6,035 nucleotides of DNA, taken from Pseudomonadota bacterium. GTDB taxonomy: Bacteria; Pseudomonadota; Gammaproteobacteria; Pseudomonadales; Pseudohongiellaceae. The notes beneath the pieces are model-generated. The model saw only the letters and a program-made list of their open reading frames with translations, searched no databases and was not told the DNA's origin. Position numbers and translations under genes: made by a program. Location of the stretch: contig JADFOC010000180.1 of NCBI GenBank assembly GCA_022563075.1, positions 1 to 6,035 on the forward strand. Reading direction: 5' to 3'. This document shows positions 1-5,664 of the stretch, in pieces. Position 1 is the stretch's first letter. Every line of letters begins with the position of its first letter.

Positions 1-785
1 TGATCAGTTTTGCAAAAGCTACCAGCAGTTTCAACCTGGTAGAGTTCCTTTGCCTTCAGCACATCGCAAGCATCATATTCATAGGAAATGGCAACTGGCA
101 CAATATGAAGTTGGTTGAGACTTTGGTTTAACGGCATTTTGCGTTGGCCCCTTGCCAGCATCTTTAATAATGCCGAGTCGGTCTTATCGATGCCGTCCTT
201 GGCTCTGCCCTCACGTTGTGCAATCCATACATTCTGGCTATTTCCAATGCAGTGGTGAATATATTCGGATAGCAGAACTAAGGCTTGCAGTAATTCTCTA
301 CCCTTGAGCGAACGTCTGACAATAAAGCTTTTATTCAACCGCATCAGGTCGCTGACGAAAGGTTTTTTCAGCAGGTTGTCACCAATCGCTATTTGCAGGG
401 TCTGATGGCCGGCGTGGTACAACATGTAATTCACGAAGGCCGGATCCATGACAATATCTCGATGATTACTGATAAATAAGTAGCTCCTGCCCGAGGTCAA
501 GTGCTGCATGCCGGAATGCGTCAAGTTTGTCGTCGTGTCTTCGATCATCTTGTCCATGTAACCCGCCACCACGTCCTGCATGCTGGCGACATTGTGCACC
601 CCCCGAAGTTGGCCCTGCAGCTTGCGCCGAGCCATAGCACGGGTCCAAGCAGGAAAAAAGCGTGTCATTCTAGGGGCATAAAAACTGGCAATACTGGTAA
701 GAAATTCCGGGTTGGTAATCAACTTATCCAACACCGGACGGATCTCATCGTCGTGATAGGGTCTGATATCTTTGAACCGATCCAT
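1..785 (-). CDS. PlsC/PlsB-type glycerolipid acyltransferase, 3'-truncated by window edge
   Basis: Read on the minus strand from ATG at 785, this frame stays open for 261 codons to the window edge, so the C-terminus is missing. The protein carries the four blocks of the glycerol-3-phosphate/1-acylglycerol-3-phosphate acyltransferase superfamily (PF01553). Block I is SNHRDIVMDP at residues 106-115, with the catalytic His108 and an Asp at 114. Block II lies around residues 135-158, ending in FIVRR. Block III is WIAQREGRAKDG at 187-198, in the place of the usual FPEGTRS. Block IV is LHIVPVAISYEY at 227-238. Members transfer an acyl chain from acyl-CoA or acyl-ACP to a glycerol-phosphate or related acceptor at the inner membrane; the exact acceptor here is not deducible. 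About 100 residues precede block I, longer than in classical PlsC. The start has only a weak ribosome binding site. The gene lies downstream of the ABC exporter gene on the same strand, so co-transcription is plausible. The family call is firm, the substrate is not. Confidence 0.85.
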   Translation of the reverse strand, partial: MDRFKDIRPYHDDEIRPVLDKLITNPEFLTSIASFYAPRMTRFFPAWTRAMARRKLQGQLRGVHNVASMQDVVAGYMDKMIEDTTTNLTHSGMQHLTSGRSYLFISNHRDIVMDPAFVNYMLYHAGHQTLQIAIGDNLLKKPFVSDLMRLNKSFIVRRSLKGRELLQALVLLSEYIHHCIGNSQNVWIAQREGRAKDGIDKTDSALLKMLARGQRKMPLNQSLNQLHIVPVAISYEYDACDVLKAKELYQVETAGSFCKTD

Positions 786-878: not shown

Positions 879-2711
879 CTAATTATTGGCCACTCGCGCT
901 GGCGGTGTCTGCTTGATGTCACCGAGCGAGTCGGCCATCGGATCACTGAACTGCAAATTGGCCAGATTGGCATACAGAGCGCAGTCTTGCATCAATTCCC
1001 GATGCGATCCCTGCGCGATTAATCTACCGCGATCCAGCACCACTATCCGATCCACATTCATCACCGTCGCCAGGCGATGGGCAATAATCAACGAGGTTCG
1101 ATTCTGCATCAGCTGCTCAAGCGCCAACTGCACCTGGCGTTCACTCTCCGCATCCAGAGCGCTGGTGGCCTCATCCAACAATAATATTTCCGGATCTTTG
1201 AGTATGGCGCGGGCGATAGCGAGTCGCTGTTTCTGCCCCCCAGACAAACGAACGCCGACTTCTCCAAGATAGCTGTCATAGGTATCGGGTAATTCGCTAA
1301 TAAAATCACTGGCATAGGCAGATTCCGCCGCCTGTCGCACCGCGTCATCGCTGGCATCTGGTCGCCCATAACGAATGTTGTCCCATACATTACCGGTGAA
1401 CATCGCCGGTTGCTGGGATACCACGGCGATGTGGCGACGTAACTCCATTGGATCAAGCTCTCGAATATCGATGCCATCCAGGGTGATAGCGCCAGCTTGG
1501 GGATCGTAGAAACGCAGTATTAAGTCAAACAGCGTCGACTTGCCGGCACCCGATGGACCCACTAGCGCGACATTTTCACCAGGCTCGATGTTGAGAGTAA
1601 TCTGATCCAGTGCCCGGATTTCCGGGCGTGAAGGATAGGAGAAGCTAAGTCCGTTCAGGGCCAGTGCACCCTTTGGTTTGCCATTAAATGTTTTAGGATG
1701 TGCTGGTGCGGTAATTTCATTTTCCGCATAGAGTAACTCCATCAGTCGTTCCAACGCGCCCGCCGCGCGTTGCAGTTCACTGATCACCGTGCTAATTGCG
1801 GCTACGGCCATAGCGACCATGAACGCGTACACCACAAAGGCGGTAAGTTCACCTGCCGACATGTCACCGTTAATCACATCCTGACCACCGACCCAAATCA
1901 TGAGGGCCACCGCGCAGAACACCAGCGTCGTCACCACGGTGATGAGAATTGAGCGAGTCCAGATGCGCGCTAAAGCGACTTTCAACGCGGCTTCAACATG
2001 GGCGCCAAACTGAGCTCGGTCATACTCCTGGTGGTTATAAGCCTGAACTGTCTTTATCTGCAAAATGCTTTCGCCAACGTAGGCACCGACATTGGCTATC
2101 TCATCTTGAGAACTGCGTGACAAGCGCCGCACACGGCGACCGAAAAACAAGATCGGGCCGACTACCAGAGGGATGCAAATCATCACCACGGACGTTAAAC
2201 GTGGATTGGTAATGAATAGAAACATGGTGCCAAATATCAGAATGAGTATATTTCGCAGCGCTATCGACGCCGACGACCCAATGACCGTTTGAATCAGCGT
2301 GGTGTCGGTAGTGATGCGCGATTGGATCTCGCCGCTGAGATTGGATTCGAAGTACCCTGGATGCAAGCCAATGATGTGTGAATAGACGGCCTTACGAATA
2401 TCGGCGGTAACCCGTTCACCGAGCCAGGATACCCAGTAAAAACGAGCGAAGGTCCCAAGGGCCTGGAGTATCGCAATGATCAGGAACCCGATAAGGGCCT
2501 GGTTGAGGGACGCGGTGGAACTGGCCACAAACCCTTGATCCACGATGATCCGCACGTATTGTACCAATCCAAGGCTGAGACCCGCGGTGAATACCAGTGC
2601 TATTGCGGCCCAGCTTATCTGTTTCTTGTAGGGTTTGAGATATTGAAACGCGCGGGAGAGATGAATACTGCTCGATTTGCTCTGCATGATGGCAATGTAA
2701 CAGCACCTCAT
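879..2711 (-). CDS. MsbA-related ABC exporter (fused permease and ATPase half-transporter)
   Basis: This complete 610-residue protein has the length and order of an ABC type-I exporter half-transporter, which works as a dimer in the inner membrane. Six hydrophobic segments lie near residues 33-53, 72-92, 147-168, 172-192, 255-275 and 288-310. The ATPase domain follows from about residue 348. It has Walker A GPSGAGKST (385-393), the Q-loop at Gln433/434, signature LSGGQ (489-493), Walker B ILLLDE with catalytic Glu514, D-loop SALD (517-520) and switch His545. No catalytic residue is missing, so a homodimer would be ATPase-competent. The segments ARFYWVSWLGERVTADIR and TTLIQTVIGSSASIALRN resemble the MsbA-related group I know as TIGR02204, rather than MsbA itself. 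Likely cargo is a lipid, glycolipid or hydrophobic compound, but this is not shown. Start choice is uncertain: ATG at 2711 gives an odd Cys-rich MRCC lead, ATG at 2687 gives MQSKSS, and neither has a good Shine-Dalgarno. An in-frame stop lies about six codons upstream of 2711. The acyltransferase gene follows on the same strand. Confidence 0.93.
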   Translation of the reverse strand: MRCCYIAIMQSKSSSIHLSRAFQYLKPYKKQISWAAIALVFTAGLSLGLVQYVRIIVDQGFVASSTASLNQALIGFLIIAILQALGTFARFYWVSWLGERVTADIRKAVYSHIIGLHPGYFESNLSGEIQSRITTDTTLIQTVIGSSASIALRNILILIFGTMFLFITNPRLTSVVMICIPLVVGPILFFGRRVRRLSRSSQDEIANVGAYVGESILQIKTVQAYNHQEYDRAQFGAHVEAALKVALARIWTRSILITVVTTLVFCAVALMIWVGGQDVINGDMSAGELTAFVVYAFMVAMAVAAISTVISELQRAAGALERLMELLYAENEITAPAHPKTFNGKPKGALALNGLSFSYPSRPEIRALDQITLNIEPGENVALVGPSGAGKSTLFDLILRFYDPQAGAITLDGIDIRELDPMELRRHIAVVSQQPAMFTGNVWDNIRYGRPDASDDAVRQAAESAYASDFISELPDTYDSYLGEVGVRLSGGQKQRLAIARAILKDPEILLLDEATSALDAESERQVQLALEQLMQNRTSLIIAHRLATVMNVDRIVVLDRGRLIAQGSHRELMQDCALYANLANLQFSDPMADSLGDIKQTPPARVANN

Positions 2712-2944: not shown

Positions 2945-3847
2945 GTGAGTTACAGACAGCCGACTTCGCTGGTCAAGTTTACTGATGCTGACTCGGGTTT
3001 ATGCATACTGTCGGACGGTGCACTGCGTTGGAGTGCCCCCTGTCTATTTAAAGATCCTTTTGAACTGGATCATCACACCACGCTGAATTTTGATTCGAGA
3101 CTACTCCTCACCGCCTGTGTGAAGAATACCCTGGGGCTCATTTTTTCACGTGACGATCCAAAGGGTATGAGTCCGCTGATCAAAGCCATTCGGCGTTGGC
3201 GCCTGGAGGATCGTTTCGATTCCGAGGAAGAAGCAGAGGAAGTACTTACCCAGCTACTCATGAGTATGGTCCAGCAACGGGAACCAGAACTATTGGGCCT
3301 AATTCGTGGATGGCAACGTTATAGCCGCGGCGTACGCATCCTGTGCCTCAGTCAAGGTCACGACAATGTGAGCCTGTGGGATAAGAATGCAGCCGAGCAT
3401 ACCGGCCTGGCGATTCGCTTCGCCTGCGGTGACGATACCAGCCTGGAAGCTCCAAAAGCGATGAAATATACCGACAATAAACCAGAAATTACCGCATTAT
3501 CTGAACAATTGGATATCCTCATGCATCAGGCAAATTTCCAGATAGAGGAAGGTTTTGCCGAGAAGTTTTTATGCAAGTCGAAACTCTTTGCCAAGGAAAA
3601 AGAATGGCGCTTGCTGAAAACCTTTGACGAAGTCGATACCGAGGAAGAAGAAGCCCAATGGTTTAGGGATTTACAATTTAAGCATTCCGAGGTGATGGCG
3701 ATTTATTTCGGTGCCGAAATGGAGCAAAAGAAAAAACAGGAAATCAACCGCATTATTCAACGCAAATACAAAAAAGCGAAATTGTATCAGGCTAATCCCT
3801 TACACGAAAAATTTGAGTTGGATTTCGAACGACTCAATCCCACCTAG
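2945..3847 (+). CDS. DUF2971 family protein
   Basis: This is a complete 300-residue cytoplasmic protein starting at GTG, with no signal peptide or membrane segment. It matches the pattern I know for DUF2971 (PF11185). An N-terminal segment ends in LRWSAPCLFKDPFE (27-40), the family's 'xxxsaFNDPFE' block. Next comes ILCLSQ (132-137), then NVSLWDKNAAEHTGLAIRF (141-159), the family's 'lmW..Ya..hkG..i.F' block, and the C-terminal KEKEWRL (217-223). Two acidic clusters (DSEEEAEE at 92-99 and DTEEEE at 231-236) and a lysine-rich stretch (262-279) are visible. The biochemical function of DUF2971 is not established to my knowledge. The conserved Trp145, Glu151/His152 and Glu220-Trp221-Arg222 suggest an enzyme active site, but that is inference. 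The gene stands alone: the exporter upstream is divergent, and the small gene downstream is convergent with a 14-base gap. That gap holds no visible terminator. Confidence 0.85.
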   Translation: MSYRQPTSLVKFTDADSGLCILSDGALRWSAPCLFKDPFELDHHTTLNFDSRLLLTACVKNTLGLIFSRDDPKGMSPLIKAIRRWRLEDRFDSEEEAEEVLTQLLMSMVQQREPELLGLIRGWQRYSRGVRILCLSQGHDNVSLWDKNAAEHTGLAIRFACGDDTSLEAPKAMKYTDNKPEITALSEQLDILMHQANFQIEEGFAEKFLCKSKLFAKEKEWRLLKTFDEVDTEEEEAQWFRDLQFKHSEVMAIYFGAEMEQKKKQEINRIIQRKYKKAKLYQANPLHEKFELDFERLNPT

Positions 3848-3861
3848 CGCCACTCTCCAAA

Positions 3862-4119
3862 CTAATCTGCATCCTCTTCAGAATCGAAATCCAGATCGGC
3901 GAGTAGATCTTCTTCGGATTCGTACTTTTCACCTTTACAGAAGGCCACCAGCCTGTACCAATATGTCTTGATAGCTATGCTGATCACTGCAATGCCTGCA
4001 ATAAGCCCCTGTACTAGCATGCTGCCAATATTGGGATCCAGGTAGGCATAGGCTGGGTGATTGAAACCGGCAATACAACTGATAACCACACAGATCGGTA
4101 ATAAATTGCGTCTAGTCAC
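3862..4119 (-). CDS. Small signal-peptide/membrane protein with YLDP motif and acidic tail
   Basis: This is an 85-residue protein. I place the start at GTG 4119, preceded by a strong AAGGAAGGA, rather than at the in-frame TTG at 4140 that would overlap that site. Residues 1-25 look like a signal peptide: MTRR positive end, hydrophobic core LLPICVVISCIAG, and AYA before a predicted cut after Ala25. The mature part begins YLDPNIGSMLVQ, followed by a hydrophobic helix (about 33-51) and then KTYWYRLVAFCKG. The last 20 residues are strongly acidic (EEDLLADLDFDSEEDAD). I recognise the layout 'Y-L/I-D-P-G-T-G-S-hydrophobic helix-aromatic/basic' as a recurrent small bacterial membrane protein of unknown role. 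The usual GTG of that motif is NIG here. The gene is divergently paired, across 147 bases, with the methyltransferase gene. I recall such small proteins near similar methyltransferases elsewhere, which would suggest a shared envelope-glycan role. That association is from memory and unverified. Confidence 0.75.
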   Translation of the reverse strand: MTRRNLLPICVVISCIAGFNHPAYAYLDPNIGSMLVQGLIAGIAVISIAIKTYWYRLVAFCKGEKYESEEDLLADLDFDSEEDAD

Positions 4120-4127
4120 GTCAGTTT

Positions 4128-4136
4128 TCCTTCCTT
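4128..4136 (-). promoter_or_regulatory. Ribosome binding site deciding the GTG start at 4119
   Basis: On the minus strand AAGGAAGGA ends eight bases before GTG at 4119. It would lie inside the coding region if the TTG at 4140 were used, so it favours the shorter 85-residue form, which also has a cleaner signal peptide. Confidence 0.65.
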
Positions 4137-4150
4137 GCAAAATAGCCTGG

Positions 4151-4254: not shown

Positions 4255-4259
4255 AAGGA
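4255..4259 (+). promoter_or_regulatory. Ribosome binding site AAGGA for the TTG start at 4267
   Basis: AAGGA lies seven bases before TTG at 4267. The only in-frame ATG further out (4135) has no such site, overlaps the leader of the divergent gene, and would add 44 residues that look like translated intergenic DNA. Confidence 0.65.
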
Positions 4260-4266
4260 CGAAAAA

Positions 4267-5664
4267 TTGCCGAGCGGTCAAATTCTAGCTTCTTCCTTTC
4301 GAGATCCCAGCGGATTCTTGTTTAGAGAATCTGGAATATTATATCGGCAGGTCAATAAAAGTTACGCCAGCAATTACGACAAACTAATGAATAGGGGTTT
4401 ATATGCGACATTGACCAAACTAAACCTCCTGATACCGCATCAGGAAGTAGATCCTAAACTAGCCCTCAGTAATTCAAGTTATAAAATCCTGCAACCAACA
4501 CCACTAAAATACATTTCTTACCCACACGAATGGTGCTTTAGTCAATTAAAAGACGCTGCGTTAGCCACCTTAAAGATTCAACAGATTGCACTGCGATTCG
4601 ACATGGTGCTGAAAGACGCCAGTGCCTACAACATTCAATATCATGACGGCAAGCCTATTCTCATAGACACCTTGTCGTTCGAACAATACCAGGAAGGATC
4701 ACCATGGTTAGCCTACAAGCAATTCTGTCAGCACTTCCTGGCACCATTGGCGTTGATGAGTTACACCGATGCTAGATTAAACCAACTGTTTCGCGTTTAC
4801 ATAGACGGCATACCTTTGGATTTGGCCAGCTCTCTGTTACCACGCCGAACCTATACTAAATACTCAATACTTTCGCACATTCATTTACACGCCAAGACGC
4901 AAGCCAAGTACGCCGGTAGCGGCGATCCGAATCGAGTCCCAAAAAAAGCAGGCAAGATCAAAAAATCAGCCTATAGCGCATTGATCCAGAGTATTCAATC
5001 GGCGGTTCGAGGACTACACTGGAAATTGCCCGCAACCGAATGGGGAGATTACTATGCGGGGACGAATTATCAATTGCACTCGATGCAGCACAAGCAAGAC
5101 TTAGTGGCTGAATATCTTCAAGCTATAGCTCCCGAACCCGGCCTGGTGCATGATCTGGGTGCAAATACGGGTCAATTTAGCCGCGTCGCTGCCGACCTGG
5201 GACATGCGGTGATTGCGCACGATATTGATGTGGCTGCCGTAGAGAAAAACTATCTCTGTGGTTTAAAGAATAAGGAGTCGAAGGTCCTGCCCCTGCTATT
5301 GGATTTAACCAATCCTAGCCCAGCGATGGGCTGGAGTTTGAGCGAAAGAATGTCATTTGTGGAAAGATGCCGGGGCAACCTGGTTATGGCATTGGCACTC
5401 ATTCATCATCTCGCCATAGCCAACAATGTACCACTCAATGTGCTTGCCAAATTCTTTGGTGAGATAGCAAGCTCGCTAATAATCGAATTTATCCCGCGCG
5501 AAGATTCGCAGGTGAAAAGATTGCTCGCTTCACGCCAGGATATATTTGAACATTATAACGAAGCACAATTCGAACGGGCATTCTCTGTGTATTTCCACAT
5601 CGAGCGCAAAGATAAAATTCGAGAAAGCGAACGTACTCTTTATTTAATGAGTTTGATCATTTGA
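4267..5664 (+). CDS. NoeA-like two-domain protein: kinase-like N-terminal region and class I SAM methyltransferase
   Basis: From TTG 4267 this encodes 465 residues; an ATG at 4135 would give 509. The C-terminal half (about 255-465) is a Rossmann-fold SAM-dependent methyltransferase. Motif I is VHDLGANTGQF (294-304), the acidic end of strand 2 is AHDID (317-321), DLTNPSPAMGW lies at 346-356, and LVMALALIHHLAIANNVPL (372-390) and IIEFIPRED (405-413) follow. The N-terminal half begins ASSFRDPSGFLFRESGILYR and includes SYPHEWCFSQLKDAA (84-98), LKDASAYNIQ (115-124), ILIDTLSFE (131-139), QFCQHFLAPLAL (152-163) and GIPLDLASSLLPRRT (181-195). The whole resembles proteins annotated as class I SAM methyltransferase or nodulation protein NoeA. 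The N-terminal LKDASAYN...ILID has the D-x4-N and later Asp spacing of a kinase catalytic loop (Asp117, Asn122, Asp134). No signal peptide or membrane helix is visible, so it is probably cytoplasmic. Substrate unknown; a glycan or its lipid-linked precursor is my guess. Confidence 0.85.
   Translation: MPSGQILASSFRDPSGFLFRESGILYRQVNKSYASNYDKLMNRGLYATLTKLNLLIPHQEVDPKLALSNSSYKILQPTPLKYISYPHEWCFSQLKDAALATLKIQQIALRFDMVLKDASAYNIQYHDGKPILIDTLSFEQYQEGSPWLAYKQFCQHFLAPLALMSYTDARLNQLFRVYIDGIPLDLASSLLPRRTYTKYSILSHIHLHAKTQAKYAGSGDPNRVPKKAGKIKKSAYSALIQSIQSAVRGLHWKLPATEWGDYYAGTNYQLHSMQHKQDLVAEYLQAIAPEPGLVHDLGANTGQFSRVAADLGHAVIAHDIDVAAVEKNYLCGLKNKESKVLPLLLDLTNPSPAMGWSLSERMSFVERCRGNLVMALALIHHLAIANNVPLNVLAKFFGEIASSLIIEFIPREDSQVKRLLASRQDIFEHYNEAQFERAFSVYFHIERKDKIRESERTLYLMSLII

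What the first reader, a model, noticed from the sequence alone, without database searches (positions are those of the whole stretch)
4267..4860. Kinase-like catalytic loop hidden in the N-terminal half of the methyltransferase protein
Seen: LKDASAYN (Asp117, then four residues, then Asn122), followed 12 residues later by ILID (Asp134). Protein kinases and aminoglycoside phosphotransferases have HxDxxxxN with the metal-binding Asp about 12-13 residues after the Asn. The preceding SYPHEW and the helix FSQLKDAALATLKIQQIALRF sit where the hinge and the helices before the catalytic loop would be. SGFLFRESGILYR resembles the first N-lobe strands, but with Arg27 rather than a clear strand-3 Lys. Inference: the 'unknown' half is a divergent kinase or pseudokinase fused to a SAM methyltransferase. 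WbdD, which caps O-antigen chains by phosphorylation and methylation, is a precedent for the combination but has the opposite domain order. If right, this could be a glycan capping or modifying enzyme.
Basis: partly seen in the sequence, partly recalled or inferred. Interest (0 to 1): 0.72.

Follow-up and report, generated by a model that had tools for sequence, protein, structure and literature searches.

The report
Kinase–methyltransferase fusion, NoeA family
This gene belongs to a widespread bacterial protein family whose front half keeps a nearly invariant kinase-type motif and whose back half carries the paired histidines of the enzyme that caps O-antigen sugar chains, so it likely adds a phosphate and then a methyl group to a surface molecule; the kinase part was already predicted in print, but the methyl-phosphate chemistry would give the nodulation gene noeA a testable job.

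Summary
The motif is real. The 465-residue protein at 4267-5664 is a full-length relative of nodulation protein NoeA. In 325 distinct family rows, Arg27 (321 of 321 ungapped), Asp117 (324), Asn122 (325) and Asp134 (325) hardly vary and persist down to 25% identity. The predicted model (pLDDT 87.5, pTM 0.89) places strands and helices in kinase order around them. A 2022 survey, PMC9758233, already predicts this family (Lani_1194/NoeA) as kinase-like plus methyltransferase, with Arg for Lys. So the reading is sound but not new. My additions: the methyltransferase half carries, at the aligned place, the two histidines WbdD needs to methylate a phosphate, where 24 of 24 aligned controls read Glu-His; overall similarity to WbdD is no greater than to those controls. 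One divergent relative links the kinase half to WbdD's kinase (probability 60%). A small YLDPGTGS membrane protein accompanies the gene in 67 of 80 loci, often with a sulfatase-like enzyme, once on a phage contig. Best mechanism: phosphorylate, then methylate the phosphate; untested. Weak points: the kinase half was not fold-searched alone and, as a family profile, matches no kinase.

The parts
4267..5664 (+). Kinase-methyltransferase fusion gene, NoeA family, 465 aa, TTG start (an AAGGA at 4255-4259 lies 7 bases upstream)
   Evidence: Translation and upstream bases; many homologues start within a few residues of this place; annotated noeA of Sinorhizobium is 34% identical over 97%
4267..5025 (+). 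Kinase-like N-terminal half, residues 1-253
   Evidence: Nearly invariant R/D/N/D, predicted secondary-structure order, published family assignment (PMC9758233)
4345..4347 (+). Arg27, likely stand-in for the strand-3 Lys
   Evidence: 321 of 321 ungapped rows, 4 gapped; lies in strand 24-30
4528..4533 (+). Glu88-Trp89, invariant pair in the hinge-like linker before helix 91-110
   Evidence: 325 of 325 rows; kept in the 11 rows
4615..4617 (+). Asp117, predicted catalytic-loop Asp
   Evidence: 324 of 325 rows, one Glu
4630..4632 (+). Asn122, predicted metal-binding Asn
   Evidence: 325 of 325 rows
4666..4668 (+). Asp134, predicted metal-binding (DFG-type) Asp
   Evidence: 325 of 325 rows
5026..5661 (+). 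Class I SAM methyltransferase half, residues 254-465
   Evidence: Structural matches span model residues 254-465; HHalign to WbdD methyltransferase E about 1e-11
5050..5052 (+). Tyr262, candidate counterpart of WbdD Tyr16
   Evidence: 325 of 325 rows; the pairing is only guessed from the ends of the structural alignment, and HHalign does not cover WbdD Tyr16
5404..5409 (+). His380-His381, aligned with WbdD His132-His133
   Evidence: 324 and 325 of 325 rows; alignment
5632..5634 (+). Arg456, aligned with WbdD Arg203
   Evidence: 325 of 325 rows and global alignment
3862..4140 (-). Small membrane protein with YLDP(N)xGS motif, divergently transcribed
   Evidence: Same kind of ORF within 1.5 kb of the fusion gene in 67 of 80 loci

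Best explanation
The protein is a fused two-domain member of the NoeA family that likely phosphorylates an acceptor with its kinase-like N-half and then likely methylates that phosphate with its C-half, which would leave a methyl-phosphate group on a membrane-associated glycan or glycolipid. Shown here: the gene, its family, the nearly invariant catalytic positions, and the alignment of the paired histidines with those of WbdD. Predicted: the kinase fold. Inferred: ATP use, the order of the steps, methylation of the phosphate rather than another group, and the acceptor. The small YLDPGTGS membrane protein would anchor or dock the enzyme at the membrane, and the sulfatase-like membrane enzyme would act on the product on the outer side; both roles are guesses.
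For: R27, D117, N122 and D134 nearly invariant in 325 rows and kept in the 11 rows of a set reaching 25% identity. Predicted order strand, strand with R27, helices, two strands, linker, long helix, strand, D117..N122, two strands, D134, with N-to-D spacing 12, within the 12-16 seen in kinases. Independent published assignment (PMC9758233). C-half against the WbdD methyltransferase profile: 97.4-97.8%, E 1.2e-11 to 4.8e-12, with H380-H381 and R456 on H132-H133 and R203, residues whose mutation in WbdD stops methylation but not phosphorylation (PMC3482155, passages). Of 30 control methyltransferases, 24 aligned and 24 of 24 read Glu-His there. Divergent relative L267 aligns to the WbdD kinase loop in register, 60%, E 8.5e-5; 0 of 300 shuffles and 0 of 400 other ORFs score as high. 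The two characterised kinase-methyltransferase glycan terminators seen in papers make methyl phosphate. Surface-glycan settings: a viral contig beside tail-fibre and glycosyltransferase genes, and a locus whose neighbours read by eye as sugar-nucleotide genes.
Against: The N-half profile as a whole matches no kinase family above background; only 1 of 334 members reached the WbdD-kinase score and the median is at background. No significant Pfam kinase hit; RIO1 at E 0.07-0.21 in 2 of 22 members. The N-half was not fold-searched alone. The strand-3 Lys is Arg, and no helix-C Glu is identifiable. The C-half is no closer to WbdD than to ordinary methyltransferases: as single sequences, WbdD scores 96.3% (E 1.5e-9) and the best control 97.2% (E 4.2e-11); a sequence-profile search of the PDB ranks METTL5 first (E 0.002) and WbdD at 0.012. 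His-His is not unique to phosphate methylation: the WbdD paper says NodS and RebM carry two His or two Tyr there. Arg is at the Arg456 place in 10 of the 24 aligned controls. Many of those controls look like one enzyme type, so the Glu-His count is not 24 independent cases. Glycan genes are not consistent neighbours, and no acceptor is known.
Confidence: 0.45

Rival explanations
1. The two halves are both active but modify different positions of the same molecule: the kinase half phosphorylates, the methyltransferase half makes an ordinary O- or N-methyl group, as other Nod-factor enzymes do.
Against: His380, His381 and Arg456 are as invariant as the kinase residues, and 24 of 24 aligned controls lack the first His.
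Confidence: 0.28
2. The N-half is a pseudokinase or substrate-binding domain that binds nucleotide or phosphate and only positions the acceptor for the methyltransferase.
For: No strand-3 Lys and no identifiable helix-C Glu; whole-family profile below detection.
Against: Catalytic-loop and metal positions are kept in nearly all of 325 rows and down to 25% identity; pseudokinases usually lose them (general knowledge).
Confidence: 0.13
3. The N-half uses ATP for another transfer, for example nucleotide transfer, or acts on a protein or small metabolite rather than a glycan.
For: Kinase-fold enzymes with other transfers are known (recalled); the acceptor is unknown here.
Against: The partner genes encode membrane proteins, and two loci have glycan-type neighbours.
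Confidence: 0.09
4. Residues 1-253 are not kinase-like at all; the motif is a coincidence in a new fold.
For: No significant profile match for the family as a whole; N-half not fold-searched alone.
Against: Shuffle odds of about 1 in 1,000 to 2,000 for the spacing alone, the matching predicted topology, the L267 match and the published assignment from remote-homology searches and structure models.
Confidence: 0.05

Closest known systems
NoeA of Sinorhizobium meliloti / Lani_1194 family (PMC9758233)
   Same: Full-length homologue (34% identity over 97%); same kinase-then-methyltransferase order, same Arg/Asp/Asn/Asp; noeA is also preceded by a small YLDPGTGS ORF
   Different: Here the sulfatase-like (NoeB-type) partner is not next to the fusion gene; a relative lies on another contig. 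The paper reports that neighbour in 38% of neighbourhoods. The small membrane gene is divergent here, not upstream on the same strand
WbdD, O9a O-antigen chain terminator
   Same: Kinase plus methyltransferase; H380-H381 and R456 align with H132-H133 and R203; one divergent relative aligns with the kinase loop
   Different: Opposite domain order; no room for the C-terminal coiled-coil ruler in the 465-residue protein; kinase half far more divergent; the methyltransferase half is no closer to WbdD than to ordinary methyltransferases
Klebsiella O7 terminator ORF6 (PMC11231755, abstract and passages)
   Same: A kinase domain lacking sequence similarity to other known kinases, joined to a methyltransferase, making methyl phosphate; shown by a D441A mutant
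   Different: Described as methyltransferase-kinase, with coiled coil and a predicted carbohydrate-binding module; its sequence was not compared here
Aminoglycoside phosphotransferase, fructosamine kinase, Kdo kinase and Pkinase families
   Same: D-x4-N and a D 12-16 residues later
   Different: No significant profile match; the strand-3 Lys is Arg

Membership tests
NoeA / Lani_1194 kinase-methyltransferase family | Full-length sequence homology to NoeA | tested here: met
   tblastn 34% identity over 97%, E 6e-61, to annotated noeA; 325-row alignment
NoeA / Lani_1194 kinase-methyltransferase family | Conserved catalytic Asp, Asn, Asp and Arg in place of Lys | tested here: met
NoeA / Lani_1194 kinase-methyltransferase family | C-terminal class I SAM methyltransferase domain | tested here: met
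Protein-kinase-like superfamily | Two-lobed kinase fold | tested here: inconclusive
   Secondary-structure order fits, but the N-half was not fold-searched alone
Protein-kinase-like superfamily | Catalytic-loop D-x4-N and metal-binding Asp 12-16 residues on | tested here: met
Protein-kinase-like superfamily | Strand-3 Lys | tested here: not met
   Arg in 321 of 321 ungapped rows; PMC9758233 takes the Arg as the Lys equivalent. I therefore say it works like one and file it only under NoeA/Lani_1194
Protein-kinase-like superfamily | Significant profile match to a known kinase family | tested here: not met
   Family profile at background; of single members only L267 reached 60%, E 8.5e-5, with the WbdD kinase. 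PMC9758233 reports remote-homology support by its own methods
WbdD | Methyltransferase first, kinase second | tested here: not met
   Order reversed
WbdD | Phosphate-binding His-His in the methyltransferase | tested here: met
   Alignment with H132-H133
WbdD | Phosphate-binding Arg203 | tested here: inconclusive
   Arg456 aligns and is invariant, but Arg occurs there in 10 of 24 aligned controls
WbdD | Methyl-phosphate product | not testable with these tools
   Needs an assay

The most novel reading that the evidence does not exclude
The NoeA family is a second, independently arranged lineage of methyl-phosphate-installing enzymes (kinase first, methyltransferase second), working in a mobile envelope-modifying module with a YLDPGTGS membrane protein and a sulfatase-like enzyme. 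The module is found from Chloroflexi to rhizobia and on a viral contig, and methyl-phosphate modification is what the host-range gene noeA does.
Probability: 0.35. Interest if true: 0.72.

Novelty: new member of a known kind. Interest (0 to 1): 0.47.

Why it matters
noeA and noeB have been known as host-range nodulation genes since 1995 (title of Ardourel et al. seen in reference lists) and are still described as hypothesised to modify the Nod factor (PMC9048898, passage). Relatives number at least 8,000 proteins (cap reached). If the C-half methylates a phosphate made by the N-half, there is a precise product to look for, methyl phosphate, in a large family mostly named only as methyltransferase or hypothetical protein in the listed hits. 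It would also show the WbdD-type reaction assembled in the opposite domain order.

Tried and rejected
Sequence searches of the protein or its N-half against PDB chains, Pfam and NCBIfam named no known family for the N-half. HHalign of the N-half family profile against APH (11 of 30 loci kept), Kdo (13 of the 22 given, of 30 fetched), Pkinase (27 of 30) and fructosamine kinase (21 of the 24 given, of 30 fetched) profiles gave probabilities of 0.3-1.0, much as 18 gene families from the same loci did (0.0-0.5), while four pairs of kinase families found each other at 94.5-97.6. Dropped loci were those whose cropped match was not a single clean frame with the expected motif, or was 150 residues or shorter. 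The WbdD kinase profile against the N-half profile gave only 9 columns (2.8%). Adding divergent members did not help the profile; in that call's 55 comparisons the best was L267 with the WbdD kinase (60.3), the next a control, L266 with the methyltransferase half (14.2), then the divergent set with the WbdD kinase (12.0).

The 50 rows shown are matches of the methyltransferase half; the absence of kinases there says nothing against a kinase fold.

I considered Glu60 as the missing ion-pair Glu and dropped it: it is Glu in 298 of 325 rows but D, Q, A, L or a gap in 7 of the 11 rows. In one search, 6 of the 30 control ORFs gave no significant alignment, probably because the wrong ORF was picked. 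The AP-like gene rule is crude and misses some (L003 has none by the rule but a Pfam Sulfatase), so 41 of 80 is a lower bound. The YLDPGTGS pattern was written; two looser YIDPNTGG ORFs far from the fusion gene in L024 fall outside it. After checking the draft against the calls I lowered the best explanation from 0.5 to 0.45 and the novel case from 0.38 to 0.35, because one search shows ordinary methyltransferases as close to the C-half as WbdD is.

Full report
What is there. The window's open frame at 4267-5664 (+) encodes 465 residues from a TTG start preceded by AAGGA. The first-stage strings are present at the stated residues. The protein has at least 8,000 relatives at E <= 0.001 (only the 8,000 candidates sharing most words were scored). 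Pfam, NCBIfam and PDB sequence searches name nothing for the N-terminal half at a significant level.

Conservation. I aligned 325 distinct rows: the window, 240 proteins listed by two searches (the best 120 of each, one of them 100% identical to the window's protein), 80 loci from bacterial genomes (the best 80 of at least 590), and four plasmid loci. The rows are related and some loci may repeat listed proteins. Arg27 is Arg in 321 rows and a gap in 4; Asp117 is Asp in 324 (one Glu); Asn122, Asp134, Glu88 and Trp89 are unchanged in 325. In a separate 11-row set that reaches down to 25% identity to the window (L267, found), all of these and Tyr262, His380, His381 and Arg456 persist. The spacing of Asp, Asn and Asp among the 27 nearly invariant N-half positions is met by 196 of 200,000 letter shuffles and 94 of 200,000 random placements.

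Prior publication. PMC9758233 (2022; section 8 read in full, other passages found by term) names this family Lani_1194, with NoeA as homologue. It reports conserved counterparts of PKA D166, N171 and D184, Arg38 for K72, no identifiable ion-pair Glu, a methyltransferase in 94% of about two thousand homologues, and conserved neighbours (65% and 38% of 816 neighbourhoods). Its main text has no occurrence of 'methyl phosphate' or 'phosphate' as word beginnings. So the kinase reading is known; the window adds a member. Eight paper searches (titles and abstract starts seen) showed no paper proposing methyl phosphate for this family; I opened five of the listed papers (PMC9758233, PMC3482155, PMC9048898, PMC10945364, PMC11231755), by passages or sections, and the library lacks most subscription papers.

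Link to WbdD. I took WbdD from the O9 locus of E. coli HS and 120 relatives. The WbdD paper's residues are where it says, and H132, H133, R203, D351, N356 and D369 are unchanged in 121 of 121 rows. HHalign joins the NoeA-family C-half with the WbdD methyltransferase at 97.4% (E 1.2e-11) and 97.8% in global mode, placing His380-His381 on H132-H133 and Arg456 on R203. In WbdD, alanine at H132, H133 or R203 leaves phosphorylation but abolishes methylation of the phosphate (PMC3482155, passages). Control: of 30 top PF13489 methyltransferases from the window's class, 24 aligned and 24 of 24 read Glu-His at that place; many look like one enzyme type. The same control cuts against a special closeness: as single sequences the best control (97.2%, E 4.2e-11) scores above WbdD (96.3%, E 1.5e-9), and 10 of the 24 have Arg at the Arg456 place. 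The WbdD paper also says NodS and RebM have two His or two Tyr there. So the His-His pair is suggestive, not proof.

For the kinase halves the family profile does not match WbdD or other kinases. The most divergent relative, L267, does match the WbdD kinase: 43 columns, probability 60%, E 8.5e-5, with D..N..D and the following Trp in register. None of 300 shuffles of it and none of 400 other ORFs scored as high (best control 29.1 against 35.8); but only 1 of 334 family members reached that score and the median is at background.

Neighbourhood. A short ORF with a YLDPGTGS-type motif and a hydrophobic segment lies within 1.5 kb of the fusion gene in 67 of 80 loci, 66 of 73 with at least 500 bases upstream, and none matches the pattern in the other 677,643 bases of the same loci. 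The window has it at 3862-4140 (-). The S. meliloti nod operon has it too, as a hypothetical 71-codon ORF between nodL and noeA. A membrane gene with an alkaline-phosphatase-type motif lies within 2.5 kb in at least 41 of 80 loci; of five such genes tested, four hit Pfam Sulfatase and one hit nothing. In the window's genome (74% complete) a gene 45% identical to the partner in a same-genus genome is on contig C130; the ORF upstream of it there is not the fusion gene, and it runs off the contig end. Of 58 genomes searched among relatives, the window's own included, 4 have the fusion gene. Of 398 genomes of the phylum, 9 (own included) match across the N-half; the other listed matches begin at profile position 208 or later. 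One viral contig carries the module directly after a tail-fibre gene and before a two-domain glycosyltransferase that hits GtrB-like O-antigen conversion families weakly (E 6e-5) and Pfam glycosyltransferases strongly; that it is a complete phage was not checked. A divergent locus has neighbours that read by eye as sugar-nucleotide genes (L290).

How it likely works. The best account is a cytoplasmic enzyme that phosphorylates a hydroxyl of a glycan or glycolipid and then methylates the new phosphate, as WbdD does, with the domains in reverse order. A second characterised kinase-methyltransferase terminator, from Klebsiella O7, also makes methyl phosphate, with a kinase domain described as lacking sequence similarity to other known kinases (PMC11231755, abstract and passages). 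The chemistry and the acceptor are inferred. I put the kinase-like nature of the N-half at about 0.85, an active kinase at about 0.75, and the complete methyl-phosphate mechanism at 0.45.

Verdict. Observation confirmed, interpretation supported, family and kinase assignment already in print. The new and testable parts are the methyl-phosphate prediction, the unnamed small membrane partner and the module on a viral contig.

Noticed in passing
L082 3754-3969 (S. meliloti pSymA) and window 3862-4140 (-): A hypothetical 71-codon ORF with the YLDPGTGS motif sits between nodL and noeA; the same kind of small membrane protein accompanies the fusion gene in 67 of 80 loci, and the two copies scanned have no Pfam family.
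   Followed up: partly
L257 4681-11353 (IMG/VR contig): A contig from the viral collection carries small membrane protein, NoeA-like fusion and sulfatase-like gene next to a tail-fibre gene and a glycosyltransferase, as surface-converting phage genes often are (recalled).
   Followed up: partly
L267 / L289 4396-5838: A divergent relative (25% identity to the window) whose catalytic loop reads DAYPWN..VDF.SI, close to WbdD's DVRPWN..IDFGSI; it may bridge the two kinase families.
   Followed up: partly
G000:C130:2974-4689: The window genome's sulfatase-like NoeB relative lies on another contig, apart from the fusion gene, unlike in the same-genus genome G012, where they adjoin.
   Followed up: partly
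window 2945-3847 (+): A 300-residue protein just under the Pfam cut-off for DUF2971 (20.9 against 22 bits).
   Followed up: no
window 879-2711 (-) and 3-785 (-): By eye an ABC exporter with fused membrane and ATPase parts and an acyltransferase-like protein, possibly lipid export; not searched.
   Followed up: no
L225 22967-25093 (-): WbdD of E. coli HS is annotated only as class I SAM-dependent methyltransferase; its kinase is unnamed in the record.
   Followed up: no
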